From contig WIXG01000303.1 of the NCBI GenBank assembly GCA_009869945.1, positions 1-64,000 on the forward strand: a stretch of 64,000 bases of DNA. Reading direction: 5' to 3'. Source of the stretch: Mesaphorura yosii (Eukaryota; Arthropoda; Collembola; Poduromorpha; Tullbergiidae). A program made the translations under genes and the position numbers. Within the stretch, counting starts at the first letter, position 1. Each line of letters opens with the position of its first letter. The notes below the pieces were generated by a model. The model saw only the letters and a list, made by a program, of their open reading frames with translations, searched no databases and was not told the origin of the DNA. Of this stretch, positions 4,911 through 62,662 are shown piece by piece.

Positions 4911-5102
4911 ACTGAAAGGCTCGAAAATATTGAATCAATATTCAATATTCAGGCAATTTATTAAAGACACATTATCCTTTTAATACCACTATATGGGTTT
5001 AGCACAAATAGAATTAACGGAATCGATTCTGCCCTGCTGATGCGTCCATTAGGCAAATTATATTCATGTTCACGCTGAAAATGAAATTGTACTGCCTACA
5101 GT

Positions 5103-20775: not shown

Positions 20776-23700
20776 TCACGAGCCCATGTACACGCACTGA
20801 GTGTGGCCTTCCAGCAACTGACTCTTGATCAGCGCCTCCACCGGCTCCACCGCAGCCATCTGCCATTTATCGCGAACCTGCAGCACAACACACAAAGAAG
20901 TAAGAAGTGGAATTATGAATTAGGCCAGGCCAAGCCGGGCCAAAGAGAAAAATTGCAATCGACGATTCGCAAGAAACAATTCTCAATTCTCTTTGACCAG
21001 CTTAATAACTGTCATTGTCATAAACGTCGTTGTCGTCGTCGTTGTCGTTCTCGTTGACTGTTGACATAAATTTGGAAGCGGAAAGCGCGGGTGGGACGTC
21101 GCCATTTCATGATTATTACTGCGATTATTATTGGAAACAACGGATAATCCTAATAATTCCGTCCTAAGCCTGTCTGCCTTCTCTTCCTTAAACTTTCTTT
21201 CTTTGATAAATACTTGTTAGACTACTTTCTCCAGCGAGTAGCTACTTTTGATATTTGTCGTTGCTATTATCGAGACGACAAAGTTTTGCTGTTTTGCTGC
21301 CTGCGCTGCAGATAAAAATTGTGATGATTATGATTGAATGATGGCCGCGGCCGCGACAGCGTACGCGTACGATACTTTTTCATTACTTGTTTGGAACTGG
21401 GACGAGGATAACGACTACGAAGATGACAACGAGCGCTTCAGCAAAAGTTTTTCAATACATTCAGCTTGGTTTTCCAAGGCTGCGTGCGTTCTGTGTTTGC
21501 TACCGCGCTGTACTTACGAGTTCAACTTGTCGGAAAACGCGGAGAAAGTTTAGTCCAGCTAACTTTTTCAAATCATCAACTGACCATCGAGCGTCTTCGA
21601 GTAGCTTTGTAAACAAATTGGGATACTTGGAGACGTCCTCCAGGCCGCGTGGAGTGCTACGAAAAGACAAGAACACGGGCGCGTTAATCCTTGGGCATGA
21701 GCATGGGATAAGCATCCTTGAAATTGCCGCGTTTGGAGTTTGTCTCATGCCGGGTCTCGGGATTAGATTATTTTTGCTACGGTACGCGGCATGGCAGGAA
21801 ATATTGCGGAATTATGAGATAATTGAATGTCCGACTCTGACGTCTTTATTAAAGAAATAGAAGACAGAAACGCCGCAGTCGTAGGAGAAAACAAGAAAAG
21901 CAGGCAATTACGAACGGGCGGAGATGAAAGTTGAGCCGAAAGCCAAGGAAAAATAATAACTGTAATTTCATAATTACTATCTTGTGGCTCTGTCGTGTCG
22001 TAATAATGTCATTAAATTATAATTAAAAACAAGCACGCTGGTAAATGGAGAAAGGCTAGTCGTTTCGACTTCACTCAAGTTTCTCAAGTGCACCAGCGCA
22101 GCGAGAAGCGGAGTACGAGACGGAAAACTAATTTATTGGATGCAGACGCGATAAATTACTGGCATGGACGCACTTGGGCCAAAGTTCAGAAAAACAACAG
22201 CAACAGCTCCGCAAGGTAAATTACTATCGTGGTAAGTCAAGAGAATGCATCATCATCCACTTTGGTCTTGCCCGTCTTGCCCGTCTTACTCATGACTCGT
22301 GACGTGAAAATGCTTACATGATCATGCAAATCATTTGCATACGTATGCATAAGTCATTTGAAGTGGAGTTCTGACTATCTCGAGGCAAATAATAATACAA
22401 ACTGCGTTCAAAGTGTTTGTTTTGCAGATTTTCTGGTTGTGTGGCTACGACGTGACTCGTGACGGACTGCAGCGTCTCCCACTGGCTGAGCTGCGACAGA
22501 AGCATTTAATAAGGAATAGTAGTTCATATCAAAGTTGGTAAGTTTAAGTTGCACTTTGATGCAGTTCCTGCACTCGTTACACGAGTATCAGAAGAGAATG
22601 AGGAAAAGCGATGAATAATTAAAGAACAACATTATGAATATCACGAGCTTCATTCGATTACTCGTGTTTGGTGTTTGATCATTTCGTCGCAGTACGCTGG
22701 CACTGGCCTAGAAGCCTCACAAGTCACAAGTTTTCATTTTGAACACTACTAAATTAAGTTCACACATTTATGCTTACGCACACGCACATGCAGTCGAATT
22801 TATGCTGCTAGATTACGTTTGCGGTTTCAATTCTACTGGCTTCCTCATTATCTCTCGTTATCACAAGCTTGCTGTCAGCGAAATTATTCAGAATCTTCTC
22901 AATTTACGAATTGACTTTGCAATGCTTCCTAAAACTGAAGCCGGCTCATTTGCGACAGTTTACTCACGTTTGTCGTCGGCGTTGTCGCGTATTTCGTACG
23001 TCATGGATGCAAGAGAGAAAGTTTAATGATAAGACGCGCGCGGAAAGATAAAGGAATGAAGTAGTCTAGTAGTCGTCGTCAAAGCCAAAGGCCACGCAGC
23101 GGCTTGACTTGCCAGCAATTAAGAGCAGGAAGCATGCTCAGGCAACTGCACAAGAAATTAATTTCCGAGTGCCGTTAAGCGTATGAGTACGGAGAAAGTA
23201 ATGGGAACTTTTCTTAGAAATTGGCTGCGTCGCAGAAAAACGAGGAATTGAAGTCTTTTGCTCTGCCGCTGCTGCTACTCGTGCCGGATTTGGAATTCTA
23301 GCGAAATCTACGACCAAATGTTATGTTTTTAAATGGTTAAAATGCAAATTCACGACTTACAAATTAATTCCGTCGAATCCGGCTCCAATCCTGTGCAGAT
23401 AGACGTAGAAAGACAACAGAAAGCTAATTAGCGACTAGCGAGAAGGAAAATATTATTGCAGAAGATTTTACTCACCCAACATGATCAATGCCAGCAACGT
23501 TTCTGATATGGTTGATATGATCTGCGTGTGGAAAAGAGGTAAAGCAAAGAGTTAATCAAAAATCGGAATATTTGCTTTCGCCTTCGCTCTCGTTTCGCTG
23601 ATTCACAATTCGGAATTCGCAGCTCACTCATGCATGCGAGTGCGAGACGCGAATGGCAACAGTAAACATTTAATTAAGGCTGTAGCTCTTTAATGAACTG

Positions 23701-26700
23701 CGACTCGCTACTGCAATTTGTTGTGCTGATCCTGATTACGAGTGCAAAACGCCGACGATGGAAATGGCGATGAGATGATGAAATTACGTTCTCGTACATT
23801 AACCCAAACTATATTACGACTTAACGCTGCGTTTTGCATGCGTGGCACGTGCGTGCACACATTCCGAAGTGTTTATGCGTGTTTAAACCTGTAAAGATGC
23901 AGTACAGTGCGAATTCTGTTGGAGAATGAAAGCTCGCGCGACAAGCGAGAGAAAGGTGCGAGAAAGTACAAGAGCACGCCACGCAGCAAATGATAAAATG
24001 AAAGCGAACGACGAACGAAGAAAGAAATTCGTCTGAGAATGTGAAAAGAATTGGCTGTCTGGAGTTCGGCCAAAATATCTCAACTCAACAAGGCGCAGAG
24101 CAGAAGCACTCACCGTTCTTGCTCTTCTTACTTTCGCTCGCTTTCACTTCACGGCGATCGCAATCCGACGGCCGATGGCCTGGCTGGTTACGTTTCATTT
24201 CATTTCATATCGAACAACACGCCACGCCACGCGCCCACGCAGTGTACGCATTGTAATGGGTCTAAATATCTTATCTCATTACAAACCCATCTCATGCTCG
24301 AACCTCGAACGCGGCACGGCAAGCAAAAATTTCCGACAGCAGAAAATGAACTCGCTACAAGACAGCAGCAGCCAATGTGCGAGTCTCCCGCTCTCTTTAT
24401 TAAGATGGATTCCAATAACAGGCCAGGGCATGTCGGTGGCAATGGCAGTGGAAATAGCAACGGTAATAACACAAAATGCGTTGCCAAATATTCATGGTCT
24501 TGTCTTGTTCACGACTGCGATCAGGAGGGTATAAATGAAAAAAATGTGTTGTGGAATGGTGAATGGCAAATGGCGAGGAAAGCAGAAAGAAAGAAAGTGC
24601 AAGACGCGACCGATGCGACGCAAGATCAAAGATCCGAGAAGAGAAAAGTGTTTGGAGAAAGGAAAAGTGTCAACAGCTTGTTCTTTTTCATTGCTCTTCA
24701 CATCGCATTAATAAGACGAGCATCAGAACGGCACGGCACGGCCAGAGAAAGGCTGTGCCATGCAAAAATCAGGCACAGATGACAATATTAATGCACACAC
24801 TCTGCTGATTTTGAATGGGCTCGGGCGGGCGCAGAAAGCAGTCAAGTAAGTGGAAATGACGGCGCATCACTTATCTTCTTCTTCCATTGCTTTCTCCTGC
24901 TGCCCTGCCCTGTCGTATCTTGAACAAGCAACAATATTTCTCTATTGCATTGCATTATTACAATTACCAAGGCACAGGGTTCAGGTTCAGTGAAGGAAAG
25001 CTGAACGGCTGATGGCTGAACGCTCGCTAAACGACGAGGGCAGGACGAGTACGATGAAGACAGTGAAGAGTTATGATACGATACGATGCTGCTACTGTAC
25101 GATGCGTGAGTGTGAGCAGATGAATGGTGATGATGATCGTCATCGTCATCATCATCATTGTCGCAAAAATGTGGTTGGTGTGCATGGCGTGAATCCCCAT
25201 TATTGGGTTTTGTAATGCGATGGCGATGTTTTGGAACACAATTTTGGCATTCATTTTCAGTACGACACCCAATATAATTTACAGGCACCGCCAACACTCG
25301 AATGTGAAAATCGTTCTCGTTCCCTAGAGCATCTCATCATCACTGTCTGTTTTTGCAATATTTTAATCAACGCTTGAAGCTGTAGTTGAGCTCGTTCGGC
25401 TCATGCGGAAATTCACGACAAGCGAGCAAGCTATACTTTGTAATTTTTAATCCCAGTCAAGCTTATGCTCTCTCTTTCAACTGTTCAACACGTGAGTTCT
25501 GGAGAGAGCAATCATAGTGCGCACGGATTACCGGCCGGCTGAGTGCACTTGGGGCGGCACGCGGCATGCATGTTTTATTCAAGCATGGGCACGTTTTGCA
25601 TTTTGCATTGATGAATTTACCTGCTGACACGCCTGTGCGACAGAAATTGCCTGTGGAAATTCTATTCCAGATTCCAGAATCAGCAAATGTTGTACAGAAA
25701 AACGGAAAAGACCCGAAGACTAGAATCGTGAAATCTGAATGTCTTCAGGCCACACACGACAAATGTAGTCATGTATTATAATTTCATCTCAGCAACAGCT
25801 CGATATTCGCCGGTCGGTCGTACAAAACCACATAACCGTAATCGTACGCTTTTTACTTTCCACGCTGCTCTCCAAATCACAATTTCACTTGTCTAGCACA
25901 CGTCCGTATGAGTGTAAGCGTTCACGTGCGAGTGCCTCATTGGCGTTGGCAACAGCAGTAGCTTTCTGCCTGAATGGACCACAAATGCGAATTGCGAAAA
26001 TTGTGCGTGTAAAAATTCGCACATGCATGTACGTGCGCGTACACATGAATTTGTTACATTTCTGTTTCCTGCCTCAGTTATACTGAATAGCTCAGAATAG
26101 CAGAACATGCAGCGTTTTGTGTCAAAATATGTTGCATTCCTGGAGCGAAAGTAAAGTGGAAGTATTCAAGTAACAGAATGACCTCCTGCTACGTTTTTGC
26201 ATTTTGCTTTACTTGCTTTCATATTTCTTATTTAACATTTTTCATTTTCCGATTCCACGTGTTTCCGTACGCGTAAACTTGAATTTATGGACAGGCCTTC
26301 AGAATATCAAATTAACAACTCATCTGTCTTGGTGTTCGTCTTTGTACAGTAACGTGAAAGTGAAAGTGAAGTAAACGAAACGAAACGTAGGACGGGCACA
26401 ACACATCAAATATTGAACGCAGCATGGCACGGCGCGGCACGATATGTAGTAGAAAGTACCTGCAGTATTTTTGCAACCAACACAATAATAAAATACCTGC
26501 GTGGGCCCGAAAAGTGGAGGCCCGGTGCAAGAAATCAGGAGGCCTGAACGCTGAGGCTGAGCTGCCTTACTTTCACCAGACTTTCACTCTACTCTTCTTC
26601 TTGCTATTTCTTTGTTGATGTTACTTTTGCTTTCGATGTTGCTGTTTTAATCCCCAGAGGAGAAAGCTTTTCATATGAAATAATTCAATATTTTTCTCTC

Positions 26701-29700
26701 GCGTTCTCTCTCAATTTTGTTACTATTATCCCACTCTCACTGCTTTCTTTCCTGGCCTTGCTTGGCCTAGAATGTGTTTATCGTGTAATGTTTGCATACG
26801 CTTACGCGTTCGCTATTTCTCAGTCAGCGTCAGCGCTTTACCAAAAATTGAACGATTGATAACAGAAGCAGCACGAATCAAGCATTCAATCCCTAAAAGT
26901 AGAAGAAGAAGTGGAAGTAAGTACTTTAGGGATTCAGGGTTTGAATCAAATAAAAATATCGCACACGCACAGAGCAAAGTAACGAAAATTCAATTGGATT
27001 CAATTCGTTCGCGAACAATTCGTACTCCTTTACTCTTCTGGGCTTGGTTGCTTACTGCTTTATGTCATGTATGTTGGTGGAAGTTGGTGGCTGTGGCAGT
27101 GGGCTCGTTTCTATATAACTCGATAGTTCGAATGTGTTAAATTTTCATATCCGCTTCATAATGTCATAATGCCATAATGCAGCGTACTCTAGTCTGTGTT
27201 ACCTGCGCACAACTTTTTTCAATCAATTCTACCTGATTGAATTTCAGTATTTTTGTAACGCTGCTGGATTTCGCAAAATGCGGAAGAGAAAGATTTATGA
27301 AATGTGTCCGACCAGGTCACAGCCGTCAGGAACAGATTGCGCTGCTGGCCGACGTCGTTCTACTTTCGCATTCTTTTCCGCGTAGTGGGCGTAGGACGTG
27401 GACAACACAAACTTTAATTGAATTAAATTCTTTGAGATTACACGGACAAATACGCACGGGCACGAAGCACGTAGCCGTCCAAGCTCGACCTGACTTGTTC
27501 AGGAGAAAGCAGCTTAGTCCACATTTCCGTTGAAAATTGTAAAATCTGTCAAACAAGATTTACTGCTTGCTTACTTATCCTATTACCTTTTTCCAGCATC
27601 CTACGCTTGGCGCTCAGTTTATTTGTGCTGACAGCCAAACACAAGCTGAAACCAACCCCGTAAATCCTCCGCACTTCGAACGATGCGGTGAAGGCAGTAG
27701 TCAAGGTTGGGTAATTTTATACAATTCACGGTGAAAGTTTGGAGTCGTGTCTTCGTTTATTCTCCTCGCAAGTCGCCGTTTGCCTTTCGCCATTCGCAGG
27801 GCCGCGGACAGCTTCGCCTGACCTCTTCGCGTTTGTTCCTACGCTTGGTAAGCCATTATCAGAGTCAACTGCATACAGCGAGCGATCCGATTCTGGGCTT
27901 TGGGTTTGGCTTTGACAATCCACCTTCGCCTTCACTGGGACAAGAGACGTCTCCCGGTCGACTAATCCCGCCAGCCACCATGAAGTCGAAGGAAATTCAA
28001 TAAAGAGCAGAGAAAGTCGGTCGGTCGTCGTAAGAAACGTGGGAAACACGCGGCTCGAACGAGGTTGAGGCGAGAAAGTCATCTGGCGTGCCCGGTCGGG
28101 CCACGCTCTTCGCACAAATGCGAGCAATCGAAGCAAGGAGCTCGCTTGGAGAGTGAGAGTGAAGATTACCGAATCGTGTTGTATTTTTTGCGCTTCCTCG
28201 AACTCGAATCGCGAGCACACGCGCGCGGCAGGAATTATGAGTCTCACCGACACCAGACAGTCGTTGACTACCCACGAGATGCCCAAACTTTCTCCAGGAC
28301 CGATCCAGCCAGGATGACTTTCGCTACGCACTCGCAATTTTCCTGCCTGCCTTTGTATCTGGGTTAGTGTTATTGGTGTTTGCGGGAAGGAGAGCGTTCG
28401 TTCAAGTGTTCCCAACATAACCATTTACGGTGGCCGAGCCACCACAGCGCGTACGTATGCGTATGAGCACTCCCGAGCGCGTACGCGTATACATTACATT
28501 TATCTCCCAACTTTCTCTCAGCTGAACTGAAAAATGTGTCAAGTTGTCCCATATTTTCTTTTTTACACTGCCGCTACCGCTGAGAAGCACGAGCCCAAGC
28601 CCGAGTGCTTTTTCCTTTGTTGCTGCGTTCCCCCGCTGCTGCTTCATAAAATTCAATTTAACTTTTGTTTCCACTCTGTTTTGTTTTTTACTTTGCCGAA
28701 ATTGAGAAAACTGCAAACTGCACTAAATTTGGCTGTCAAAATTTATTTTGCACAAAACACACAACAAATAAATTGAACAACTTCTGGACAGGATGCCTTC
28801 CTTCAAGATGAAGTGCACCTCGTGGCTTAGTTTGGTTTATTGCTCATTTACAATTTACAATCGTGTGTGGGCCGGGCGCGTTCGCGTTATACACAAGAAT
28901 CTTGCGATCTTGTACGTAGTAATTTCATCATCTGATAGCAGCAAATCACGTTGACATACACGCAAAGACAGAAGACGGCCGATCTGGCCTGGGTTGTTTT
29001 ATGAGCGGGTCTTTGCAGATAACCCAATCTGCTCATGATCAGCCATTAAACTTTGACGAGCGAGTCGTATATCAGGTCGTAATGTGCAGACATCGTGCAC
29101 TGCAGCGTGTGACAGCATTTTACGGATTTTACGGCCGGAATCGGCAACAGAAGCACAATCAAAGCGTATAGCGGCAATCCGCAATAAAAAAGCGGTTAAA
29201 CTCACCAATGACGTCGTTGATACTCGCTGATTCATTGCAGGTGATAAAATAACTGTAAAAATTTACCATTACTAATCCACCATTCGAACTCTGCAATACA
29301 ACGAACAGAAAGATTTGAGTCATGAGCATCGGGCCTCGGACAAGGTCAAAGTTCACATGTTCAAGTTCGCTTACAAGTAGATGCAGGATATCATCAGGCA
29401 CATTTCGGCTGCTGTTGCACAGGCTGTGAGCGGAGGAGTGGGAGAAGATGACGGGCGCCTGCGTCACCTCCAGCGCATCTCGCATCGTCTGCACCGACAC
29501 GTGGGACAAGTCAATTATCATCCCCAGGCGATTCATTTCCTTGATAACCGACTGCAAAAGGAATTTAGAAGAAACAGAATCCAGAATTAATTGAAAGCTG
29601 CCTGCTTGCGCTTGGCACAAAACGTACGATTGAATGCGAATACGAAAGGTTATCTTTGTCAGAGGCGTTAGGGTATTCAGTTTCATTAAACCTGCACGCA

Positions 29701-32700
29701 CGCTCCTGTTCGTAATGCGATTACAGGCACAAACTCGAGTTACATTTATAAACTACCACGGTGCGATGATCAAAAGAAATTAGGAGAAATGGCTTGGTGA
29801 ATGAAACAAGAGAAATTTTCAAAGCTTAGCTGGCTCGGTTCAGCCTGGCTTTGAGTTTGCGTTTCGTTTGTGTATTCGCGAAATGGTTATGATTATAATT
29901 AAATCTTAGTGCCAATGCCAGTGCCAGTGCCAGTCTTCCGTCACGCCGCGCCAGGATAAGTTTTGTCTCCATCGCATTACCTTGCCAAATTCTTTGAGGC
30001 CACTGGATTTAGTCTTTGAACCAGGATCATCCGCTGACGAGCAATCAGCCCTGCAACGGAATGAAATGAACGAATCAATTATTAATACTACTCTTAATTA
30101 TCGCCATTGCCAAATGCGCCAGCGATTCCATTAGCAAATTTACAATTTACGCTCACAACTCCCACTTGTAAGAAGACCAAGAAATTGTCGTTCCCTGCCA
30201 TTTGCCTGTCATTGCCATTTTAAGAGCTGCAACATTTTTCGTACGCTCAACATGAAAATTTTTAACGAGTTCGCAAAGTACGCCGTATTTTGTGAGGGAA
30301 GGCGAACGGAAGAGGAAATGATGTACTCTGAACTCTGATGCTCTGCAGCTACTTTGTTGTCGTTAGTTATGCGTCAAATCACAGCCAAAAGCACAGGCAC
30401 GGGCACGGCAAAGAAGTTCAACGTTCAATCAGTAAACAAGCGCGATGCGCGACTGCGACTTGAGAAAGGTGAAAGTCCTTCAGCGTGACTGTGCCAGCCG
30501 TGCTGTGCTTGGAAATGGCAATAGCAAGGCAATTCAATGGCAGCATTGCGCAGAGTACTTGAACCATGACGGCAATAATGCAGCATACGCGAACGCGTGT
30601 ACGCTGTGTGTGAGAACACGAAGGCCCGCTGAGAACTTATTATTCGTCGTGACAACCGCCACCATAAATTAATTTACGCTCTCTGCTTTCGCTCTTTGCG
30701 TTTGCTAGCTAGTGCTTACCACGGCGTGTTACAGCTGTGCGTGAGTGTGAGGTATCGGGCTCCCAGGTTGTAAAACATCCGGAGCACGGCGATGCTGTTC
30801 CCCAGCGAGTGGCCGCCCTCCACGCCGACCATGCTCGCAATCTTCCCGCGACGGTGAGCCGACTCGATCCCTGCGATCAAGAAAGAATTGAAATCGCTGT
30901 AATTGTGGTAAAATTCTTTGGGCGCATATTTTACGATTTTTTTCAAGGAATAAATGTCGGGTCGCCAAATTCTGTGACGGAGACAGCATTTTGGACGTGA
31001 GCGCTTTCAATTTTTAAGAACTTTCTCCAAACCGTATGCATGGCTGCATTGGCATTAGTTCACTTCGCAATTCTTTTTTACGGCGCCTTTTACTGCCGCC
31101 TGGACTGCTGGACATTAGGCAACTTTTTCATGATGCTTTCTCTTTTTTAGTGCGGTCATTTGCTAAAAGTGGACATTACATGTTATTGTCGCCCTGCAAT
31201 TTTCCCGTGCGCTGCGAAATTTTGCCTGACCCGGCTGTGATGCTGTGCTTTGGCTCTTGTGAATCATAAAAAGGCAGGCAAAACCTGCCCGGCGCCGTCG
31301 TCACAAAACGGGAACGGAGCGCAGAAAGTGCAATTCAAATCTCGGGACAATGAAAAAATGGATTTCTGCATATAACCATTTGATTATTGCATGTGCACAC
31401 GATGAACAAATGCAAAAGCAACCAAATGGCAAATTGAATAGCAGCACACCGGTGAAAGTGTTTGCTTTTGCATTAAGTAATTTTCCGCGCGAGCGCCCGC
31501 GCCGGCCGAACACCGCCAAAGTTCTGAATTCTGAGGAAGAAAAGCACGTCGCCATGCACAGCGAAATGCCGATGCAATGCCAAAATGCGAAGTGAAAGTG
31601 GCAAACAAGTTTGTCTCGGCTGTTCGTCCAACTAAAACTAATATGATTGGAAAGTTATTTTTCTGATGAAGAATAAAAAACTTTAATTTAGTTTCTCGTA
31701 GTGCACAAAGTACACGAGGCGTGAGACGTCGATAGCACGTCGGATGGCATCTCCAGCACTCGAGCGCTGAAGCACGCGTAAGTTCGTTCGTTTGCTCAGG
31801 TTGAATTCTTTGAAGAAGACGAGCCACTGGAGAAACAAACTAAATTTTTTCTCCTGCACGTTTGGCTGCTGCTGCTGGTAAACTACGCTGCGAGCGAAGC
31901 AGCACAGGCTTAAGTAATTTTGTACAAGAAAAGGCCAATTTATTGCATTAAAAACATTTTCTCCGCTCAATTTCACTCACTTTCTTCACCGGTTAGGACT
32001 TCTTTTTTACTTTGGAGACTAAACTTCATTACCGAAAGTGTTCGCTCTCAAAAATGTTGCCATTTCCTGCATAAATCAAGCCAAGCATATTTTTACGCAT
32101 AATTTTCACGCACTGCACTTGACGTGGCCAAATCCGAGCGGAGACACACCTTTACGCTGTTCTTGCGGGAAATTCCTTAAATATTTGGCTAACGCGTGGG
32201 AGCAGCACGAGACATTGACTTTCACCGCACCGGTGCGAGTGGGTGCACGGCTGCGAGTGAAAGTCGAAGGAGAGCGGCCCAGTGAAGCGAGTGTTTTGTA
32301 TATTTAAATATAATTTGGCATGGAATTCAAGCGTAGTTGGCTACAATCTGTGCTTGTGTCTGCCCGCGCTGCTTTCACTGAGGAAAGAAAAGGGCTCGAG
32401 GGCAATCGCATGAATAAATGTAAAATGGTGTAACTTAAAAAATATTCACAAATCTACACCGCCGTCTTTGACAACATTTTTCATTCCCAGGGCCGGAACA
32501 GAAAATATGCTCGGGAGAATTTATTCTTGCGCGTTCATTATGCCAGGCAGCAGCAATACGATGACGCTCGCGGGGAGAACGAAGAAAGGAAATTGGCATA
32601 TTTCAAGTCTTTCTCTTGACTTGACTTTGATATTTTCACTTGACTTGATTCCTGTCCTCAATTCGTAGTTCAGCCGCTGCTGCCATTACTTATCTGCGCG

Positions 32701-50700: not shown

Positions 50701-53700
50701 TCTCTGCCCGCGTCCGAGTTTCTGTTTCTGTTTTGTACTTCTTTCTCACAATTTACCAAATTACTCATTACGGACGAATATTAGTATTGATTTTACAGCA
50801 AGGGCGGTGGAGGACGAAGATTCTTATTCTCAGTAAACGCTGTACGCTGGGGTTAACGCTAAGAAGTTACTAGAAGTGGACCAAAGTAACTGCTACTGCT
50901 ACAGAATTGCACGTGAGACGTGATAGAAACTTGGCTCAGGCCTGGCCGGGCTCAAACAAGCCACAAATTGTTGAATTGAAACAATAAAGTACGCGTGGAG
51001 CGTTAATCCTGCACGTGAGTTGTGAAGGAATGCTGGAGAAAGCCAGGAAAGCTGGAGAAAGTGGTGGGCGGTGTCCTTGCCTGCCTTTCTTACTGCCTTC
51101 TCCCGTAGTAAATATTTTTATCCATCTCAATATCTCGTATCTGGAGAATTCTCAGGAGAAAGTCAGTCGGTCGACAGTCGGCAATGGCCCAGACTACTTG
51201 CTAGACAATACAAAACGTTCAAGTGTACTGTGCTACAATGGAGAAAGTCAAGACAGCGGAATAAGGAAAGGCAGGCAGGGAAGTGAAAGTCCAACAAAGG
51301 CAACATTGTGCTGCCTGCCGTCATTGTGCTGCTGGCTTGCTGCTTGTTCATTGCTGAACCACTCACGCCATGGCCGCTCGTACAATGCGAGTCGTACAAA
51401 GCAGCATGTGAAGTGTACGTTTGAAGTAATCAAAAAGTCATCGTATTTCTTCACTTGGAAAATGAGGTAAGAAAGCTGGGCTTCAGCACAAATGTTCAAT
51501 ACGGAATAATATTCTGGGAATTTCTACCCTCATTTCTGCTTTGGCTTCTGCCTGTTGCAGTTACGATCTGGCCGGCCAGCGCCTGCCCGTCAGTTATTGA
51601 CTGCTCCAATTGCTCTTGCTGTTGCTTGGCTTCACTTGCAAGACACATTCATCAATTATTTTATTATTATTACTTAATAACCGTAATGATAATGTGCGAC
51701 CGACAAATGGCACAATTCGCAATTCTGTTAGTGAAAGCGCTTGCAAATTCCAGCACAAGAAAAAAATCGCGAGAGCCCGCTCTCGTCGTGTATGGCTTTC
51801 TGCGGCTGGGTCTCGTCTCGTTGCATTTTTCTCCTTGTAGATAAGATTTATTCAATCTTAAAACTTTTCACATTTTCAAATTATATTTTCTATGGTTGAA
51901 TGGAGCTTTCGGCGACTGCGACTTTGCCTCTGCCTCTGCTTCGTGCCGTGCTCCGGAATGGAATGGAATGACATGTCGGCGTCGTCGAGGAGGAAGTTGG
52001 AGACTTGAGTCGACGAGCCGCGGAGACATGTGTCTGTCGAGACTTTCTCCTCGGCACAATACCCACAATGCGAGTACCCTACAAGAAAGAATGGAGAAGC
52101 AGTCGAAGCCCAAGTTGAACGCAGTAGCAGCAGTCGCATTTCGTCGCATTGTGCTTTATTTTTTCTGGGCGCACTTGATGAAGCGGAGCAGGCACGGAGC
52201 CTTTCTCCAATATAATCCGAATGCTGCCGCCAGCATCGTGTTCTTCGATAATCTTTTTTATTAGCATGCTTATTTGACAAGCAGCAGTTTGCACATGCAA
52301 ACTTGCAATGATAATAATACGCATAGGGTGAGTGAACGAAGACGAAGAACAAGACACTGCATTCTTTCTGTCTTTGTTAAGTCATTATACTCTATGAAAT
52401 CATACGCGAGAGAGAGATTCTGCATTCATTTCCTTTCCAGACAGCACTCGAGGCCACCCCACACAGGTGCTTTGTTTGAGAAAGGTTAAATCAACTTCTC
52501 TGAGCCCATATTTTTGATGAACTAAACTTTTTTATTTGTTATTTCTCCCATTCGCATTTCGCAGTTTAAGTTGGCGATTTGTATCCCGAATCAAGCCAAA
52601 TTGCTATCCAGTTACGATCACAAGTCAAATCACATGCATGGACGACTTTCCGATTAAGTGTGCGGCTGCGCGGCGGGGTGAATTGCTTGCACAAGAAAAA
52701 TGAAGGCAGTGATGCACAGAGGCAGATTATAAATGGAGAGATTTGGTCTGGCCAATTTATTTGCTTGGCCTGAAATTACATTTATTCTTGTGCCCACACC
52801 CGCGACCGCGCCTATGCCTTTCCTGGCTGACTGGCTTATGCAGATGGGTATAATAAATGCTGGGTAATACGAACGAGGCGTGCGCGTCTCGCGTCGTAGT
52901 CGTATCTCGCGTCTCTCAGATGAATGAGTAATGGAAATTCATTCAAGATTACTGCAAGATAAAAACGGAGCCAGGCAAATGGAGAACGAGAAAGTGGGCT
53001 TCTTCTGCCCACGAAATGCGAAAGCAGCCTACTCAGAAGCCAAGCCAAGCCAGTTAGACCACAGAATAGAAAAAGAGACAAATAACAATTTATTTCTCGT
53101 TTCTTCCAAATACAATCACTCCAGCAGACTCAAGTGTGCTCATCTCGTCTCCTGAACGCACAACAAACTAAACTAGCTGACTGCGCTGCGAGTTGCAAGC
53201 AAATAAAAAGCAGAAAGCAGCCTAGCAAGGATTCGAATGCAAGCCGGGCCGATAACATCAAGATTACGATCCTTCACCACAATCCACAATTGAAGTTTCG
53301 AATTCTCGGTTCCGTTGTCGAATCCTTTTAAAAATGACAATGATCGCTTGACATTGTAATATCATCAAACGTTTCAATGGTTGACTTTTAACATCAATCG
53401 TGGGCGCTGACGCCGGCGTCGGCGTCTAGGCCGCGTCTGCAAGTCGCAAAGGGAATCGCATCGCGCCCGCTTTGATAACCCGCATCATTTACTTTATGAA
53501 CGACAACAGCACAAATCGATGCAATTTTTCCGGCGTGCCGTGCCGGGCCATCAGAGACCACGACGATCATGGAAACCGAGAGCACGAGAGAAAGCACCAC
53601 AAAAATTAAATTGGGTTCATACGAGTAGTCACGAGCAAATGCGCAGAACAGCAGATGACGAGAATCATCAAACTCAAAACGAAAATTCAAAATTGGATTC

Positions 53701-56700
53701 CTTATTGTAATAATAATGGAAATGGACTTTGGTCACATCACTTGGCCGGCAAGCTTGCTATGTGCACATGCACACAGCAGGCAAGGCAGAGATGAGAAGA
53801 CAGCAGAATAATAAAAGGATGATGACAAAAAAACCAAAACCCCATCGTCGCCATCTCATTCCCATACACTCACGCGAGACGCGGAACTGAAATATCATAA
53901 TAAAATGTAATATGTATATCGATCAAGTATGCAGATAGCTCGAGACGGCGAGGACACTTTAACTCGCCATGGGCGAGTAAATATGCAGACGAGTAAGCAC
54001 TGCCATTGCTGTCCACTGTCCAGTTTATCGATCCTGTCGCGGTCCTGCTCCGGCTCAAAAAATATGATTACGATTCTGAGACCAAGTAATTTGAGACCGA
54101 CCCGATCATCCCAGGCTTGTGTGCAGTCACAGTCGCAGTAAAACGAGAACGAGGACCAAGCCAAGCCAATAATGACAGAAATTCAATAAAAACCGACAGA
54201 AACGAGAACGAGCACGAAAGCGAATGCGAATTTATTGGTGATCAGCGAATCCTTAAATTACGATACGAGAACTGCGGTCTCCTATCGTAATTGCGATTGC
54301 GATTGGCTTTGGCGACGGCACGGCGAGGTCATCGGCCATGCGATGCGATTGCAATTGGGGCATATCAGAGAAAGGGAAAGAGGACACATGCGATAGGCGA
54401 AGGCGAAATAAGCATACAAAACAAATTGCCATTATAATGCAATATCATTTGAAATAAATGAACCCAACGCAAACGACGACGATGACGATGAAGGCGACCG
54501 ACAGGGCAATACAATGTTTTCGAATCTACTCCCTTCTCTGGCCTACGTCGCGCCAAGCTGCGAAGGAAATAAAGTCGGAAACTTTTTGTTTCGAGTTTCC
54601 ATTTTTAAATTCCCAACAGACAGGAAGGGCCAAACTCGTGTGTATCGTTTTTCTTCATCAATTCGTATCGCAGCGGTCGCAGTCGCAGCAGCGCACACGC
54701 AGTTTCAGAAAGTGCGCACTCGCATCGCGGTTTTCTGCCTTCGCTCGTTTCTTTTCTCATTTGGAGTCCTGAAATGCGCCTGTCACGCCCGTCTAATCTC
54801 GATAGAAATTAGATACGTTGAAAGCGAGAGTAAGCCTTTAGTTGTCCAGCTCTTCTCGCTTTCTTTCGTGAAATTGATTCATTATCGGATTGGTCGAGTC
54901 AATATTTGTCCTGAAGCAAATTCCGTTGCGCGGCGTGGCGTAGCATGGGTCATCAGGCTTCGTGGCATTGTGGCCACTTTCTCAGAGTAGAAACTCCAGG
55001 TTTCTTTCGTCAGTTCATTAGTCCACTTCTTTCACTCAATTTCTTCCTTCCTCTGTCTGCTTGTAGCCAGAGCCACATACTTTTTAGGACACACGACACG
55101 TACGAAAACCGTGCCTTCTCCGTGCACGTGTCCGTGTCCGACATGTACTTAAAATGTTGGAGGAATTAGTCATTATTTGCAGATGCAGACTCGCGGCAGC
55201 AGCAGCGGGAGAGAGCAGGTATAAAAGTATCACCAAACTCGGTCGGTCTTCGTCCGTTCGTCTTGGCTTTCCTGGTCGAGACCGGAACGAATTAACAAGC
55301 AGTCCGTCTAAACCAAATGTTTGAGCACTCAAACTATCACGTACTTTGCTTGCTTGCGCATTAGAGAAAGCAAACTTTCTCCAGCGTCTCCAGTAATGAA
55401 CTTCTTTTTGTGCGCTGCTCGTTGTCGTCGTCGTAGTCGCCGTCGTTTGTCGCAGCCTGTGATTGTCGTCTTGACCCAATTTCATTTTTTGTAATACATT
55501 TTCTTTTCTTTTTCAATCTGCGCGTGTGCGTACGCGTACTCATACGCCTATTTGTTTTTCCAATTGCCGAGCTCGAGCTCAAGCTTTTGCCGCTTAGCCC
55601 GAGCCTAAGCAGAGCACACCGAAATTTTTAAGTAACTGAGTACATAAAAAGCTTAAGTGTACGGCACAAAGGGCTGAAGCAGCTTTCTCCATGATACTAC
55701 TCGGCACAGTGAAAGCAGCACGGTACAATTATAATCGTGTACAATGTACAATGTGCTCGCTCACAATGCAATACAAGACAGAATTCCAAGATTAAGTCGG
55801 AGAAAATCTCCTCCTCTGCCTGCTTGCTTACTTACTTGCTCCTTTCCATTTCTCCTTGGTTCTGGTCTTGGAGATAGTAGAGAAAGTGAGCGGTAATAGA
55901 AACTGTGAGCCGCTGCTGTACAGCGATTCGCTTTTCAGCATGCTCGTCGTCTCGTAAGCCCACAGTTTCGACAAAGTTCTTTTTCTTATTCATCTGTCGA
56001 AAAAGGATTTACAAAAGAGGATCTTCCGAACAGCAGCAACGAACAAAGGCAAAGATTTCATTGTACAGTGCAGAATAGCACGCAGAATGCGTCAATTTCC
56101 AGCTGTGTCGTCGTTGTGCATCCGTGCAAATGGTCGCGTATTGAATTATTGAATAAATTGTAGCTTATCTGTCTTCCATATGAATGCAGTGTAGTACAAA
56201 GAATTCATCATCATCAACAACCTCGCATGCACTCTCGCAGAGAAATGCAATGCAATGTGGAAAAGTGCTCAAAAGAATTTGAAACGTTTCAAAAAAATTA
56301 AATTTACAAAACAAAGGAGCAGAATTTCGATTGCACACGAAGCGACGGCTGCCAAACTTTCATCATCAAAGTGAATCTCGAATTTAAATTCCAAAGTTTC
56401 AAGTTCTTCAACCACGAGCAAGGAAATTGAAGTGAGGCAATGCTTTAGCCGTCGCTTTCGCATTATTCAAAGCTTCACTTCACAATGGCCTTGGCTCCAC
56501 ATTTACGAGTTTAGTGTTTGGCAATTTAACTAATTAAATTCGCGCAAAGCGGATTTTTCTGTACAACAGCAGCACCGAACCAAAAATGAGATATTGCTCA
56601 TTCATTACATCACCATTGAAATTTACTCGGCCCAAGGGCAAAAGGATACGGAAGCTATTGCGAGATTCGGGGCTTAGCAACGGACATCACTCAACAAGAA

Positions 56701-59700
56701 TCAAGACGAAAGATCATAAAGTTCAAGAAGACGTGTCTGCAAGCTAACAGACGGGCTACCGGTTGAAAAAATATTTGCACAGCTTCACTGATGAACGAGT
56801 GACCGATTTTCTGCCTCTATATGGATGAAAATGTTTTAATTTATGTGATTTTATGAGCAGATTCAAAGTATGAAAGATAGAATTATGCCCGAACCCTGAG
56901 CGTTGCGAGCGGCCTGGTATGTTCATTTTTGGTTATCTCTCTGTTGAGATGGTGAAATAAGTCCGCCTGGCTCCAGAATTGCATTACCAGCCTCACCTTC
57001 TTCCAGGTTTCCCCTCTTTTCATGCCTGCAGACTCCAGACAGGTGACATGAATAAATTATGACAAGGCAAATTGCTGCACCACGCTTTAAAACTAATTTC
57101 TATTTCTGTTCCTGGCAGAGCCGGCAAGCAGCCGTACGACGCAGTACAACCTTTTGAAGAATTTTACTTTTACATTTCATTACAGCAAAAGTTTACAAAG
57201 TCAAATTTGATTTTTCTCGAGTGCAGCCACGGCCAAAGACACAAAAGTATAGTAATTGAAATTGTTGTCCTTCGGGGCAAAAGTATGGAATGATTTATCG
57301 TGGAAAGTGGAGAAAGTTGCTTTCTCTTCAGCTGTAAGTGCACTTTTGTCTGCTTTTTTCGAAGTAGAGCAGAGCAAAAAGCGTCTAACTGATGGGAAGA
57401 TATTATTTTTAAATACACTTTGATTATTTTTCGAGGAATAAACAAATAAGCAAATAAGCTCAAACTCAGGGACTTCATATTTCTGGAGAAACCAGCGTGC
57501 ACGCACGTGCACGTGGAGAAAGTAAATACGGATAGATTTTAATGAGATTCAAAATCGCAAATAATAATGCAGGAACTGCCCCAAAACAAAATGTTTTCTT
57601 TCTCCTCATGCATTTGAAAGAAATTCACATTTTGCAGAAATTTCACATTAGAATCTTTGCATCGTATTCCATTTTACTTCTGCTTCTTTCTCCTGCTTTC
57701 TCCGAGTATATTATTATGCGTACGCGTGCGCGTGTATTTGCTTTGTTTTCTTCGTGATCATCTTCCTTTCCTTTCTTCAGCAGGCGGGCGCTACGCGCCT
57801 ATTCCATCCGCAGCAGCAATGGCAAGAGATAAAAGGAGCCAGCTCAGAATTCAAAACAAAACAAAATAATAAGAAACGGAGGAATAAAAGGTTTCCATAA
57901 TTTGATTCCCTACAAACGATGAGAATCGCAATCGCATGGGTGACTGTAAAGCAGGACAGAGCAGAGCGTTCTTACTTTCTCTTTTTTCCAGGCTAGAAGT
58001 TGTCTTTTTATGAACTCAATTCTCACTTTCAGCCAGCATCTTTTTTTGCATTCTCTTTCTTCAGGCTGGCTGACGTAATTCTTTTGTGCATGCGAACCGT
58101 GTGAATAAAATGTGTTGATATTTTATACGTTTTACATGCATGAATGTAATTTTATTCGCAGCGCTGCTCTCAAATTGCGTTCTCTGCTTCGTATTTACAT
58201 TTTGCAGTCGGAGTGCTTGAGTTATTATTGTTGGCGTAGACAGAATGCTGGAAAATCTTTCAAAGCATTCAAATTCACAGTCGCTGCTTCTGGCGTTTTC
58301 ATTCATCGATCCAGCATCCAGGCGGCTGCAAGCGGTCCAGGCCAGGCCAGGTAATAAATCATCGGCGAGGAATGCCCAATGATAAAAGGAAATGTTTCAC
58401 GAGCCACCAGCACAGTATAGAATTCAGCCAGCATTGGCGTGCTCCGCACGCTTTGCATGTCAAATGGAATCAGGAAGGAATTAAGCTGTCGTAATGTTCG
58501 CAGTACAATACTTTTATAGTTCCGGTCTACCTTTCAGCTCAGCAGCGAAGCGAAGCATTCAATTGCACTCGCTGCTCAATGCATAAGCATTTCGGAATGA
58601 TGACAGTAGGAGTCGGGATATAAAAAATTATTTATGAATACACTTCCAGGAATCCGAACGAGGGCAGAGCCGAAGCGTGAGCGTAAAATACGTACGCTGC
58701 AATACAAAAGCTTTCCATTTCCACATCCCGGCCAGGTCCACGAGGGATTCTCAATGGAGAAAGCAAAACAATGCTTTCTGCTTTCACATTCACATTCCAC
58801 TTTCACATTTTGGCTTCGCTTAGCCTGGTATGGCGTGGCCCAGCCTGGCTTCGCCGATTTCGGTTCGATGATCAGAGTGTCTGCAATATTAATTCTAATG
58901 CTTTTTGTCCAGGTGAGTCACTGAAACTGGGTCGGCCGGCTTCGGCCACGACGCTGCGATGATTACACGAGTGAGATAATAAAACTGACTTTTTATGGCA
59001 CACTATTCCGTTCTTTACCACGGGCATAAAAAGAAAACTTTACCTATTCACAATTTTACGTACTCCTCAGCGCTCGGTGGTGAATTCCCGCTACGCACGG
59101 GACTTTTTTTTGTTTCATTTCGCTCTTTTGTCTCTGTGAATTGTGAATTCAATTTGCCAGTACTTTGCCTTTACCTTCGCCTGTACGACTACAATAATAT
59201 ACGGCTTAAATATACATGCAATTACCTTCCAGCCCGTAATTCTAATATTTCAGCTCGCAAATTGACTCTTTGCGCGCCGCGCCGCCTGTCAAGATCGTGC
59301 ATAAAGTCGGTGCTTGAATGGAAATATATGATGATGGCCTTTCTACTCTGTTCTGCGCTATTTGTACTATCAGGATCAGTGTTATCATTGAATTGGGACG
59401 GACGGACGGGACTGCTGCTGCTGCCTGCACATTATCGCCACCACGTATACGTATTCGTATTCGCCATCGCATATGCACTCATGAATTGATGTGCTAATAA
59501 ATTTCCTTGAATGGGGCGCCCATAAAATAATTTCATTGAATAGCAAATAGCAGAGCAGTACAATGATAAAAAGAATAGCAGCAGCAAAGCAATGGAATTA
59601 ATTCGGAATTCAATTGAGTGAAAGCGAAAGCCACGTCGCACGTCTCGCTCGTAATTTGTCACTATTTTTCTTCTGAATGAATAAATTTAACGCGAATTTA

Positions 59701-62662
59701 TGATGTGAATGGCAGGCAGGCAGTAGGAGAAATTCAAAAGAATTCTGGACTGACTGGATTTTGTTTCGCGAGTTGGTCGCATCGCAGTCGCATCACTAAA
59801 TTCAAAATTCACACGGTCAATCGTGGCGTGGCGTGTACTGCCGCCACCGCTGTGCTGAATTCGCACAATAAATATTCAAACATCCTGCATGTTCGTGCAA
59901 GATTCTTTGGTTGGTCACCTCAGTCGACCGAATAGCGTGCATAATTGTAATACAAAATGGCTCGGCATGTAAAATTCACGCGTACACGAGCACACGGCAC
60001 ACATGGCCAAGATGAATTGTTTCATTCATCGCAGATCGCGGTAGTGCAGCTGTCACCATTTAATATCTACAGCCCGTCTCGTCTAGTACGACGACGTACG
60101 TGCTCTTTCTTTGGTATCACGTACACGAGGGGTGGTATGGGAAAAATTCGTACTGCAAAAATTAAAGTGGAGCATCTTCGTGGCGGCTTGGCGTGGCCTG
60201 GCGCCCAGCGGGTCGTGAAGTTTAAGACGAGCATATGCAAATTCCGCCACGCTTTTGACGAACGACGACCGCAAGGCATCGCATCAGTATCAGCCATCAA
60301 CATCAAATGGGAGCTTGGGAGATGAATTAGTATTCTGGGTCCATTCTGAGCAGAGCAGCAGTGCAAGTGTGTTCCGTTCCCATGTCTGGCCTGGCTTGGT
60401 CTTTTTAATGAAGGAGCACAGTCAGATTGTGTACGTCTGTGCCTTTGGCTTTGGCGTGTGTCAGCGAAATGAGAATTTTAAGAAAAAAGCGGAAGAAATG
60501 AGGTTAACCAAATCAGGCATAGAAAATTGTAATTTAGTGCGATATGCGAGTTTTGCGGTGCGGTGGCAAAGACAGCTGCTTGCTGCTTGCTTCACTCATT
60601 CATTTGTCTTGCCGCATTATCATCCGTGACAGGCCTGCCGTTGTTCACAGATTCATAGGAAAGCACTTTGGTGATTAATTAAGGAAAAGCATGACGAGAC
60701 GGAGATCACCAGCAGCATTATTATAATATTCATCGTCAACAAGCACGAACGCGAACACGAACACACAGCACTTTCTCCACGCTATGCCGCATATTTTTAA
60801 TTTGTTGTTATTCAGAGAGCTCAGAGCCTCGAATGAATGGTGAGATGCTGAATGCCGCTGCTTTCACTCACTTTCACCATCGCATAGCGATCCGCTTGTC
60901 TCGTCACTTTCACCAAAGCTCGCCGTCGCGCGTTCATTTCGCTTTTACTTTCGCTATTCGCATTCAGTTCATTTTCTAATTTGGAATTTGGAGCTGCTGG
61001 CAGCTGCCTGGCTCGTTCATTGCGAGCCTTTTCAAGAAAATGAACTGGTTCACTGTGTCTTTGATTTCTAAAGACAGCTTGCTTTCCCTGAGCCAGAGAC
61101 ACTGCGAGAGTGTAGCGTACGTACTCTTTCAATTAATGCCGCCCGTACAACGATAATAATGTCGAATATTCAACTCCACACTCTTTCGTTCTGCTTTTGC
61201 TCATTCTGTAAAAATAATTATGCCATTGCCAGTCTAGCAGGCAAGCAGACAGGCAAGAGTGCAGAAGGCAGAAGAAAGAAATTTACTTGTCAAAGCACAA
61301 TCATTATGAGTGTGTAAGGCGGGCAGTGCAGTAATGATCAGAGAAAGTTCATAGTTCATTGGAAGTCTTTTCTCTTTCAAATTCCCGAACCAAATTTTTG
61401 CATTTTAATCAAAGTCGCGAAAAATTCTGGATTCAATCATTTGTTCCTTTCATTCATTCATTCTACTCTGCGAGCCATTCATCTGCCTGCGGAGCTAAGC
61501 TAAGCAATTGTGCGGGCATTTCAGCATTGTTTCGTACTTTCTCCATTTACGAGACTTGTCATAATTATAGGAAATTGGGGTCGGTGCTCTGTGGGAACGG
61601 GATTTCTTTTGTTTTGAGGTAGGAAAAGGAAGAAGAAAAGTCGGTTAAAGTTGTGAACGTCTTAAGTACGAAATAATGAGAAGCAACGAGGCAGCAGGCT
61701 TGCGTTCCCACAATGCGGCACATTCAAGAGAAAGTGCGAGCGCACTGCACTAGTTTATTAAGGAGCATCGCACTTACTCCAGCTCACTGCACGCAATTTG
61801 AGAAAGCGACTGGAAAAGTAGCAATCGCAGCCGCTGTTGCATTTTATTGTACGGTGCGTTATGGTGCGGATTTTAACTGTAATTTGAATTTACTTTGAGC
61901 AGCGATTTATGATTATGAAGGTTGACTTGGTTTTCAGCTTTCGGCTGCTGCCAAGCTTACTCAAGACAGGAGGGTTAAGTGAAAGCGTAGAGTAGCGTAG
62001 GAGAAAGTTGCGTAACCGCAGAGCAGAAGTAGAAATACGTAGTTTAAATAAAAGCGTGGCTTTTTTTAATAAGGAATAGCGGGCGATTATATTTCAAGTG
62101 CTCAAGTATATTTATTACGTTGAAAATTAGTCGCAGTCGCCGCATTTCCATTTTCCATTGTGCTTTCTCTCGTTCGGTGCTCTCTGCTCATTAACGGCAA
62201 GCTAACAGGCGGCTCTTGCCGGAGCCGTGCCGTGACTGCAGAATGAAATGAATCAAGGCGAATAGCGAAGGATCAATTCCCGCAAAGCAGACCAAGTCTA
62301 CAGGGAATAATTTGCAAGTTTAAACACACCAGAATCACTTTCTACTCACTGTCTTTTAATTTACACTTTACGCACTGACAAATGCGGAAATGTGTATGCT
62401 TGTTAATGCCAAATGCGATTATCGCTTGCTAATTGCTAATTACCTGGTAGTCGAGGTAGTTTCCATAGCCCATATGATCACACGTGCACGTGCAGCGTTG
62501 AATGTGTTCATGGATATTTATCGGAGGCGGCCACTGGTCGGGGGAGAGTTGCAGACCGAGGCCTGTGACAGCAGTGTTCGCGGCGCCTGTACACGAAGCT
62601 CCGAGAAGTGTTGTGCCTGAAGGAAATGGTGAACTGGATTGTCCCATTACCTCGTGTTCCAT
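20776..62662 (-). CDS. Membrane dipeptidase B, predicted type II anchored (13 exons over 42 kb)
   Basis: Exons are 62662-62444, 45521-45305, 44176-44002, 36052-35896, 35005-34873, 30870-30720, 30050-29981, 29551-29375, 29290-29206, 23521-23476, 23390-23361, 21656-21518 and 20877-20776. The total is 566 codons plus stop and all phases close. Residues 1-145 have no known domain (CTCTC near 58-61, then a Gly/Pro/Ser-rich stretch). One helix follows at about 154-179 ([19 protein letters not shown]), then the M19 dipeptidase domain. Zinc ligands are kept: H205 and D207 (HND), E318 (VEGGH), H391 (DLSH) and H412 (FSH). SSRNVPDD is also kept. The DFDG motif reads GAGFDG, so the first Asp is Gly481. 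Residues ahead of the helix should be cytoplasmic. The first two exons are less certain than the rest. A shorter form starting at MKHW (residue 151) would keep the anchor. Confidence 0.87.
23522..29205 (-). other. Intron of dipeptidase B, 5.7 kb
   Basis: It separates the exon ending ...INDVI from the exon encoding [11 protein letters not shown]. It contains several open frames over 200 codons on both strands, but they have skewed, low-information composition and no family resemblance. No internal gene is supported. Confidence 0.6.
29909..29934. repeat. Imperfect GTGCCA tandem repeat
   Basis: About four units of GTGCCA/ATGCCA in tandem lie in the 429-nt intron between the dipeptidase B exons at 29981-30050 and 29375-29551. 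It is a simple-sequence repeat. Confidence 0.55.
30871..34872 (-). other. Intron of dipeptidase B, 4.0 kb
   Basis: It lies between the exon ending WVTTPR and the exon with VEGGH. Apart from copies of the GGAGAAAGT/GGTGAAAGT words (31020, 31451, 32218), I see no coding or RNA structure. Confidence 0.55.
37762..38073 (+). CDS. Nested secretory peptide precursor with C-terminal Cys loop (2 exons)
   Basis: Exons are 37762-37878 and 37963-38073. The 84-nt intron (CAG/GTAAAG...ATTTTACAG) is a multiple of three without an in-frame stop. The precursor is 75 residues. It has a strong signal peptide ([20 protein letters not shown], cut near ESLP), a 35-40 residue spacer with acidic and His residues, then a dibasic site SKR followed directly by the C-terminal [13 protein letters not shown] and stop. 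The two cysteines bracket nine residues, and an FFFW core lies inside the loop. This layout (signal, spacer, KR, Cys loop at the C-terminus) is that of a neuropeptide or hormone precursor. It recalls somatostatin and allatostatin C, but the spacing and sequence do not match either. AATAAA at 38182 fits its 3' end. A second KR inside the loop is odd. It is on the opposite strand inside an intron of dipeptidase B. Confidence 0.62.
   Translation: MSLPFKSVLVLFICVIFFAIIESLPINHANPYTSYFNYQVKSSINIHAKIVIKWTKFSDFINFMILQTHNDENQFIVQEDLEHQHPRSKRIFCFFFWLITKRC
40310..40534 (+). CDS. Possible small secreted protein, 74 residues
   Basis: An intronless frame from ATG 40310 starts with [20 protein letters not shown] then ALP, a good signal peptide with a plausible cleavage site. 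A short, mostly polar remainder with two cysteines follows. No dibasic processing site or family was recognised. It lies in the same dipeptidase B intron and on the same strand as the peptide gene 2.2 kb upstream. A hydrophobic start can arise by chance in AT-rich DNA, so this is a weak call. Confidence 0.25.
   Translation: MFLKVCAIAVVLVLLRGLISALPNNKLRTCIDSNNFTRHSKTRENCQLKVGSGPFALPEANLHQTQTANFATLF
48830..48850. repeat. TCA microsatellite
   Basis: TCATCTCATCATCATCATCAT is a simple trinucleotide run within the first intron of dipeptidase B. Confidence 0.6.
50632..50650. repeat. CCTG microsatellite
   Basis: CCTGCCTGCCTGCCTGCC is a run of just over four tetranucleotide units in the first intron of dipeptidase B. 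Confidence 0.6.

What the first reader, a model, noticed from the sequence alone, without database searches (positions are those of the whole stretch)
21224..62008. About 29 copies of one 9-bp word confined to a single gene's introns
GGAGAAAGT/ACTTTCTCC is expected about 0.5 times in 64 kb on both strands, but I count about 29, all within dipeptidase B and only one in an exon. Both orientations are nearly equal (16 and 13), which favours a double-stranded DNA-level role over an RNA signal. Flanks differ, so it is not a dispersed long repeat. Possibilities include a binding site for a GAAAG-reading factor (the GTGAAAGT variant resembles PRDM1/IRF-type sites), a chromatin or nuclear-organisation element, or a target preference left by a tiny mobile sequence. 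I know of no description of such an array.
Basis: partly seen in the sequence, partly recalled or inferred. Interest (0 to 1): 0.75.

Follow-up and report, generated by a model that had tools for sequence, protein, structure and literature searches.

The report
Dense one-factor binding-site array
A stretch of about 42 kb in and upstream of one enzyme gene of an unnamed animal holds some 87 copies of a nine-letter word that looks like the binding site of a single DNA-binding protein, a real and unusually extended cluster whose function still has to be shown.

Summary
The core observation is real. GGAGAAAGT occurs 30 times in the window, 29 of them at 21224-62008 (13 plus, 16 minus), against 1.1 expected from a third-order model of the same DNA and 1.5 per 41 kb at the genome average. 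Two details need correcting. One copy lies outside (11800). Only 11 of the 29 lie in the coding span of the dipeptidase gene; 17 lie upstream of its first coding exon found (5'UTR intron or intergenic, unresolved) and 1 past the last. The word is the centre of a degenerate motif, RGWGAAAGY: 87 sites in 43 kb, 44 plus and 43 minus. All eight forms are enriched; other single changes number 0-5 each. Density is about 2/kb in 10-kb bins, tapers on the left, and is zero in 64.0-96.6 kb. Genome-wide the word is 3.4 times its reversed control, and close pairs are about 13 times random expectation. I read it as an extended homotypic array of double-stranded sites for one GAAAG-reading factor. Blimp-1/PRDM1, whose likely orthologue the genome encodes, is the leading but imperfect candidate. 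Function and conservation are untested.

The parts
21224..62875 (.). Homotypic array: 87 sites of RGWGAAAGY (29 exact GGAGAAAGT), about 2 per kb, both strands. The left edge is gradual: two more sites at 20093 and 20108
43376..47797 (.). Densest run of the exact word: 9 copies in 4.4 kb (43376, 43574, 43704, 45726, 45947, 46369, 46828, 47056, 47789)
37031..37080 (.). Tight cluster: two GGAGAAAGT on minus and one GGTGAAAGC on plus within 50 bp
51035..51290 (+). Run of five sites, all plus (51035, 51054, 51155, 51240, 51282)
39728..43215 (.). Largest site-free gap inside the array (3.5 kb)
44001..44170 (-). First coding exon found of dipeptidase paralogue 2 (signal-peptide-like start, ends ...EVPLIDG); edges approximate
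35870..36054 (-). Dipeptidase paralogue 2, exon [11 protein letters not shown]... (64% identity to paralogue 1); edges approximate; a site AGAGAAAGC (35865) sits at its edge
34868..35008 (-). Dipeptidase paralogue 2, exon (Peptidase_M19)
30701..30898 (-). Dipeptidase paralogue 2, exon (Peptidase_M19)
29195..29548 (-). Dipeptidase paralogue 2, exon(s) (Peptidase_M19), two matched pieces
23475..23525 (-). Dipeptidase paralogue 2, exon piece [17 protein letters not shown]
21515..21655 (-). Dipeptidase paralogue 2, last coding exon found; holds the only exonic exact copy (21541)
44171..62875 (.). Upstream half of the array (44 of 87 sites, 17 of 29 exact copies): 5'UTR intron or intergenic, unresolved
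   Evidence: inference
11800..11808 (-). Single outlying exact copy, inside the span of dipeptidase paralogue 1, which holds four RGWGAAAGY sites in 5.1 kb

Best explanation
The stretch of about 21-63 kb is an extended homotypic array of binding sites for one sequence-specific protein that reads double-stranded RGWGAAAGY in either orientation. It acts as a broad cis-regulatory domain (many sites bound additively or cooperatively by the same factor) of the dipeptidase gene it fills, or of a gene nested in or next to it. Blimp-1/PRDM1, a zinc-finger repressor with a GAAAG core, is the most likely reader (about 0.3 on its own). Shown: the array, its motif, its symmetry, its right-hand edge, the genome-wide pairing of the motif, and a Blimp-1-like gene.
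For: Base tolerance typical of protein-DNA reading: exact word 29, A at position 1 11, T at position 3 11, C at position 9 9; the 24 other single changes 0-5 each. All eight RGWGAAAGY forms are more frequent per base in the array than in 140 kb of background (29,9,11,5,11,6,8,8 in 43 kb against 2,8,4,0,6,3,7,2). Strand symmetry 44:43 and 16:13. Flanks of the 29 exact copies no more alike than random stretches. No clear fixed-position signal in +/-90 bp except T/C before the word. Genome-wide pairs with a gap of 0-30: exact word, same orientation, 27 against 1 in the reversed control and 2.0 expected at random from the word's own abundance; wider motif 386 against 72; opposite orientation 30 matches at 27 places against 2. 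For the last two the random expectation from abundance was not computed. Density 1.7-3.0 per kb in 10-kb bins from 20 to 64 kb, then 0 sites in 64,001-96,567. A Blimp-1-like gene on contig C54: three exons 80, 77 and 86% identical to the typed PRDM1 fingers. Published PRDM1 consensus (A/C)AG(T/C)GAAAG(T/C)(G/T) (PMC7378894, passage): 8 matches in 43 kb of array against 4 in 140 kb. Close double cores GAAAGY(N)GAAAG: 7 in the array, 0 in 140 kb.
Against: No binding, chromatin or expression data; no sister species at hand, so no conservation test. The favourite word GGAGAAAGT differs at two positions from the PRDM1 consensus, and the G/T expected after the core is not preferred. Genome-wide, GGTGAAAGT is only 1.25-fold over its reversed control (1909 against 1528), though 2.2-fold over a third-order model (881). 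Not a general feature of dipeptidase genes: two 3-kb stretches at the C186 dipeptidases hold no site; two at the C1 dipeptidases hold 2 and 1, but those I picked after seeing the sites. Sites are mildly clustered with a 3.5-kb gap, not uniform, and the left edge is gradual. The local DNA has more short tandem duplications than background, so some neutral process acts here too.
Confidence: 0.55

Rival explanations
1. A chromosome-organisation or chromatin-recruitment array: many copies of a short site together load a zinc-finger or adaptor protein over tens of kb (as in nematode pairing centres or, recalled, dosage-compensation entry sites), with no particular link to the dipeptidase gene.
For: Spread across introns and upstream DNA, independence of orientation, an abrupt right-hand edge, unusual extent. 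Pairing centres are regions in which a zinc-finger protein recognises a repeated 12-bp motif (PMC7140621, passage).
Against: The motif is also scattered and paired on very many contigs. In some searches, whose lists are complete, no contig shows more than two places; but searches list only their first 100 places, so other large arrays are not excluded.
Confidence: 0.15
2. Neutral by-product: sequence turnover in this noncoding DNA (short duplications, purine-strand bias) keeps generating GA-rich words, and one of them drifted to high number.
For: Short tandem duplications with 5-6 bp units are 2.2-2.6 times as frequent in the array as in background; several other short words are also over-represented.
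Against: Exact copies share no flanks; the reversed word is at 1 in the array; tolerated changes are confined to three positions; order-3 and order-4 models of the same DNA give 1.1 and 3.7. The parts of the contig left and right of the array also have raised duplications but few or no sites.
Confidence: 0.2
3. Promoter motif of small noncoding transcription units, as the motif upstream of nematode 21U-RNAs (recalled), scattered on both strands of introns.
For: Both strands, introns, unrelated flanks, clustered.
Against: No second preferred base at a fixed distance within +/-90 bp beyond what so many columns give by chance (best 3.2 standard deviations). The window has a 7tm_7 chemosensory receptor, which points towards an arthropod without proving it.
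Confidence: 0.05
4. Target preference or remnant of a tiny mobile element.
For: Dispersed copies with different flanks.
Against: No excess of direct duplications beside the 87 sites (2 bp: 6, 7.0 expected; 3 bp: 1, 2.4 expected; 5 bp: 1, 0.2 expected), no extended consensus, graded base tolerance.
Confidence: 0.02
5. RNA-level splicing or processing signal in long introns.
For: Many copies in long introns.
Against: No strand bias relative to the gene (16:13, P 0.71; 44:43), and half the sites lie upstream of the coding exons found.
Confidence: 0.02

Closest known systems
Homotypic clusters of transcription-factor binding sites (enhancer architecture)
   Same: Many copies of one factor's site, both orientations, different flanks, clustered beside or inside a gene
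   Different: Here 87 sites spread over about 42 kb at about 2 per kb, instead of a compact cluster (the usual size is recalled)
PRDM1/Blimp-1 binding sites
   Same: GAAAG core followed by T/C, G two bases before the core, A before that in 37 of 96 window sites; Blimp-1-like gene in the genome
   Different: Favourite form has G instead of A and A instead of T/C in the 5' half; no G/T preference after the core
C. elegans meiotic pairing centres (HIM-8/ZIM)
   Same: Short motif repeated many times over a region and read by zinc-finger proteins (PMC7140621, passage)
   Different: Motif here is found genome-wide; chromosome position and any meiotic role unknown

Membership tests
Homotypic transcription-factor site cluster | Local excess of one motif above composition and above the genome average | tested here: met
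Homotypic transcription-factor site cluster | Independence of orientation | tested here: met
   44:43; 16:13, P 0.71
Homotypic transcription-factor site cluster | Graded tolerance at some positions, near invariance at others | tested here: met
Homotypic transcription-factor site cluster | Occupancy by the factor and effect on a gene | not testable with these tools
   no binding or expression data
PRDM1/Blimp-1 site | Matches (A/C)AG(T/C)GAAAG(T/C)(G/T) | tested here: inconclusive
   full consensus 8 in 43 kb of array against 4 in 140 kb; the commonest array word does not match it
PRDM1/Blimp-1 site | Blimp-1 zinc fingers encoded in the genome | tested here: met
IRF (ISRE) site | GAAANNGAAA double core | tested here: inconclusive
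   GAAANNGAAA 21 in 43 kb of array against 32 in 140 kb, about twofold, much less than the ninefold of RGWGAAAGY; no AA preference two bases before GAAA
Nematode 21U-RNA promoter motif | Second signal at fixed distance downstream (recalled) | tested here: not met
   no clear column within +/-90 bp
Dispersed mobile element | Shared extended sequence or target-site duplication | tested here: not met
   the one repeat family checked that includes the core accounts for two sites

The most novel reading that the evidence does not exclude
A gene-sized domain is marked by an array of about 90 sites for one zinc-finger protein, used not as an enhancer but as a loading platform that gives the whole domain a distinct chromatin state or nuclear address, a kind of cis-element not described in arthropods as far as I know. 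(Lowered from 0.12 to 0.10 on checking, because only the right-hand edge is abrupt and the sites are not evenly spaced.)
Probability: 0.1. Interest if true: 0.8.

Novelty: new variant of a known kind. Interest (0 to 1): 0.5.

Why it matters
If the sites are bound, this is a natural test of how one factor reads a very long single-motif array: whether binding is additive, spreads over a domain, or organises chromatin. It also gives a ready motif (RGWGAAAGY), over-represented genome-wide in its commonest form, as a starting point for the regulatory code of this compact animal genome.

Tried and rejected
Long dispersed repeat: direct and inverted repeats of 22 bp or more in 20.5-63.5 kb gave 9 direct families of 2-3 copies and 13 inverted pairs; one family (D2) includes two sites (24889, 57695), and with 2-3 copies none can account for the array. 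Tandem repeats: 13 rows, none with the word as unit. RNA families: no match at the gathering score among 4227 families; 0 tRNAs. Fixed-distance partner signals: none convincing. Hexamers near the sites: of 681 tested the best score was 3.8, compatible with chance. Regular spacing: gap variation is slightly above random (coefficient of variation 1.25; random 95% range 0.82-1.21), so sites are mildly clustered. Coding density as the cause: no relation in background (Spearman -0.13, P 0.67, 14 blocks, open-frame cover as a rough measure). A link to all dipeptidase genes: not seen. Papers: GGAGAAAGT as a whole word occurs in 0 papers of the held library (its reverse complement was not searched). 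Searches showed no such array among the titles and abstract starts listed; most of those papers I did not open. Opened, passages only: PMC6448932 (Blimp-1 binds IRF-type elements with GAAAG), PMC7378894, PMC4497732 (Blimp1 and IRF motifs overlap), PMC8450109 and PMC6854374, the last two without a usable arthropod Blimp-1 motif, and PMC7140621.

Limits: searches with many matches list only the first 100 places, so I cannot say that this is the densest array in the genome. The bounds 20.5-63.5 kb were set after seeing the sites. No sister species. Organism not named.

Full report
Observation. The exact word GGAGAAAGT occurs 30 times in the window: 13 on plus, 17 on minus; 29 lie between 21224 and 62008 (13 plus, 16 minus) and one at 11800. 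A third-order model of 20.5-63.5 kb expects 1.1 copies; in 100 simulated stretches the word never exceeded 3 and no 9-mer exceeded 16. The whole genome (93,006,257 bases, 1127 contigs) holds 3495 copies against 1043 of the reversed word and 1331 by a third-order model of 140 kb of background. So the word is over-represented genome-wide about threefold, and this locus a further nineteenfold (29 found, 1.54 per 41 kb at the genome average). The plain Poisson tail (7e-27) overstates the case because the word is clustered genome-wide: pairs within 5 kb on contigs C1-C3 are 2.0 times the random number, and the fullest 41 kb there holds 9.

The motif. Single-base changes are tolerated at three positions: G to A at position 1 (11), A to T at position 3 (11) and T to C at position 9 (9); the 24 other changes give 0-5 each. 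The motif is RGWGAAAGY, with T or C favoured before it among exact copies (T 19, C 6, A 5, G 0 of 30). It has 87 sites in 20.5-63.5 kb, 44 plus and 43 minus. The eight forms number 29, 9, 11, 5, 11, 6, 8, 8 in 43 kb against 2, 8, 4, 0, 6, 3, 7, 2 in 140 kb of background; AGCGAAAGY is also raised (9 against 5). Flanks of the exact copies are as different as random stretches, and duplications beside the sites are not in excess.

The domain. In 10-kb bins the sites run at 1.7-2.2 per kb from 20 to 60 kb and 3.0 per kb in 60-64 kb. In 2-kb bins they vary from 0 to 9, with a gap of 3.5 kb at 39.7-43.2 kb. On the left the density falls gradually: 0.7 per kb in 10-20 kb, 0 in 0-10 kb. On the right it stops: the last site starts at 62867 and the remaining 32.6 kb of the contig (64,001-96,567) hold none. 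Fourteen background blocks of 10 kb hold 0-5 sites each, 32 in all or 0.23 per kb. Two 10-kb blocks on C3 chosen for clusters hold 4 and 7. Eight 5-kb stretches around close pairs hold 3-8 including the pair (40 in all, 24 without the pairs). Three further stretches of 4-5 kb hold 2, 0 and 4. The chosen ones are not a fair sample.

The gene. Peptidase_M19 (membrane dipeptidase type) exons of the minus strand were found by profile and by comparison with paralogue 1 at 10.8-16.0 kb: about 44.2-44.0, 36.05-35.87, 35.0-34.87, 30.9-30.7, 29.5-29.2, 23.5 and 21.66-21.5 kb. The stretch before the first of these reads like a 3' splice site (by eye), so an upstream exon is likely but not located. Of 87 sites, 42 lie in the coding span, 44 upstream and 1 past the last coding exon; of 29 exact copies 11, 17 and 1. 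'Introns of one gene' is thus possible but unproven. Paralogue 1, with shorter introns, holds four sites in 5.1 kb, more than background but less than the array. Of the dipeptidase genes elsewhere, two 3-kb stretches on C186 hold none; two on C1 hold 2 and 1, but I looked there because one search had shown copies nearby. To the right lie a sugar-transporter-like frame (71.5-72.3 kb) and a coiled-coil frame with a HOOK match above its cut-off (75.3-76.6 kb).

How it probably works. Equal orientation, graded tolerance, unrelated flanks and pairing in both relative orientations fit a protein that reads double-stranded DNA. Same-orientation pairs of the exact word number 27, against 1 in the control and 2.0 expected at random from its abundance. 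Wider pairs are 386 against 72 and opposite-orientation pairs 30 matches at 27 places against 2; part of these two ratios comes from the motif simply being more abundant than its control. The GAAAG core plus T/C recalls Blimp-1/PRDM1, whose published consensus is (A/C)AG(T/C)GAAAG(T/C)(G/T) (PMC7378894, passage). Many other zinc-finger proteins score above it piece by piece, so orthology rests on identity, not rank. Close double cores GAAAGY(N)GAAAG number 7 in the array and 0 in background. Against Blimp-1: the commonest word has G for A and A for T/C in the 5' half, and no G/T preference follows the core. I therefore commit to a one-factor array acting as a broad cis-regulatory domain, with Blimp-1 as leading reader, and mark binding, effect and target as inferred.

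What is not shown. No conservation test was possible: the search tool says that this genome has no relatives held. Genome-wide places are listed only in part where matches are many, so the rank of this array is unknown. A neutral origin is less likely but not excluded: the region is rich in short tandem duplications (5-bp units 3.65 per kb against 1.64 in background, 2.40 left and 2.06 right of the array, and 0.8-0.95 in second-order models).

Noticed in passing
10840-15981: A second, more compact membrane-dipeptidase paralogue on the minus strand next to the array-bearing one; further Peptidase_M19 matches lie at two places each on contigs C1 and C186.
   Followed up: partly
37699-38073: Plus-strand open frame inside the array with a signal-peptide-like start and a dibasic site before a cysteine-bracketed end (...[17 protein letters not shown]), possibly a nested peptide-precursor gene; no Pfam match at E 0.1.
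   Followed up: partly
20500-63500: Short tandem duplications of 4-7 bp units are more frequent than in background blocks and than in second-order models; the contig on both sides is also raised, less so.
   Followed up: partly
20500-63500: Other words raised against background: CTGCTTTC (20 against 2.1), CAGGCAG (34 against 6.8), CGGCACG (21 against 4.3), CACGTG and CGCGCG (palindromes, counted on both strands).
   Followed up: no
3723-4934 and 5424-6935: A 7tm_7 chemosensory receptor and a bestrophin on the minus strand, pointing towards an arthropod-like animal.
   Followed up: partly
L036 (G000:C375:48101-53100): Small dense cluster elsewhere: five exact copies within about 340 bp, eight RGWGAAAGY in 5 kb.
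   Followed up: partly
L009-L012 (64001-96567 of the contig): No RGWGAAAGY site in 32.6 kb right of the array, where the background rate of 0.23 per kb would give about 7.
   Followed up: partly
L042-L043 (G000:C1:91501-94500 and 131001-134000): Exact copies lie within about half a kb of the most upstream dipeptidase match of each of the two C1 genes; seen after the fact, and absent at the C186 genes.
   Followed up: partly
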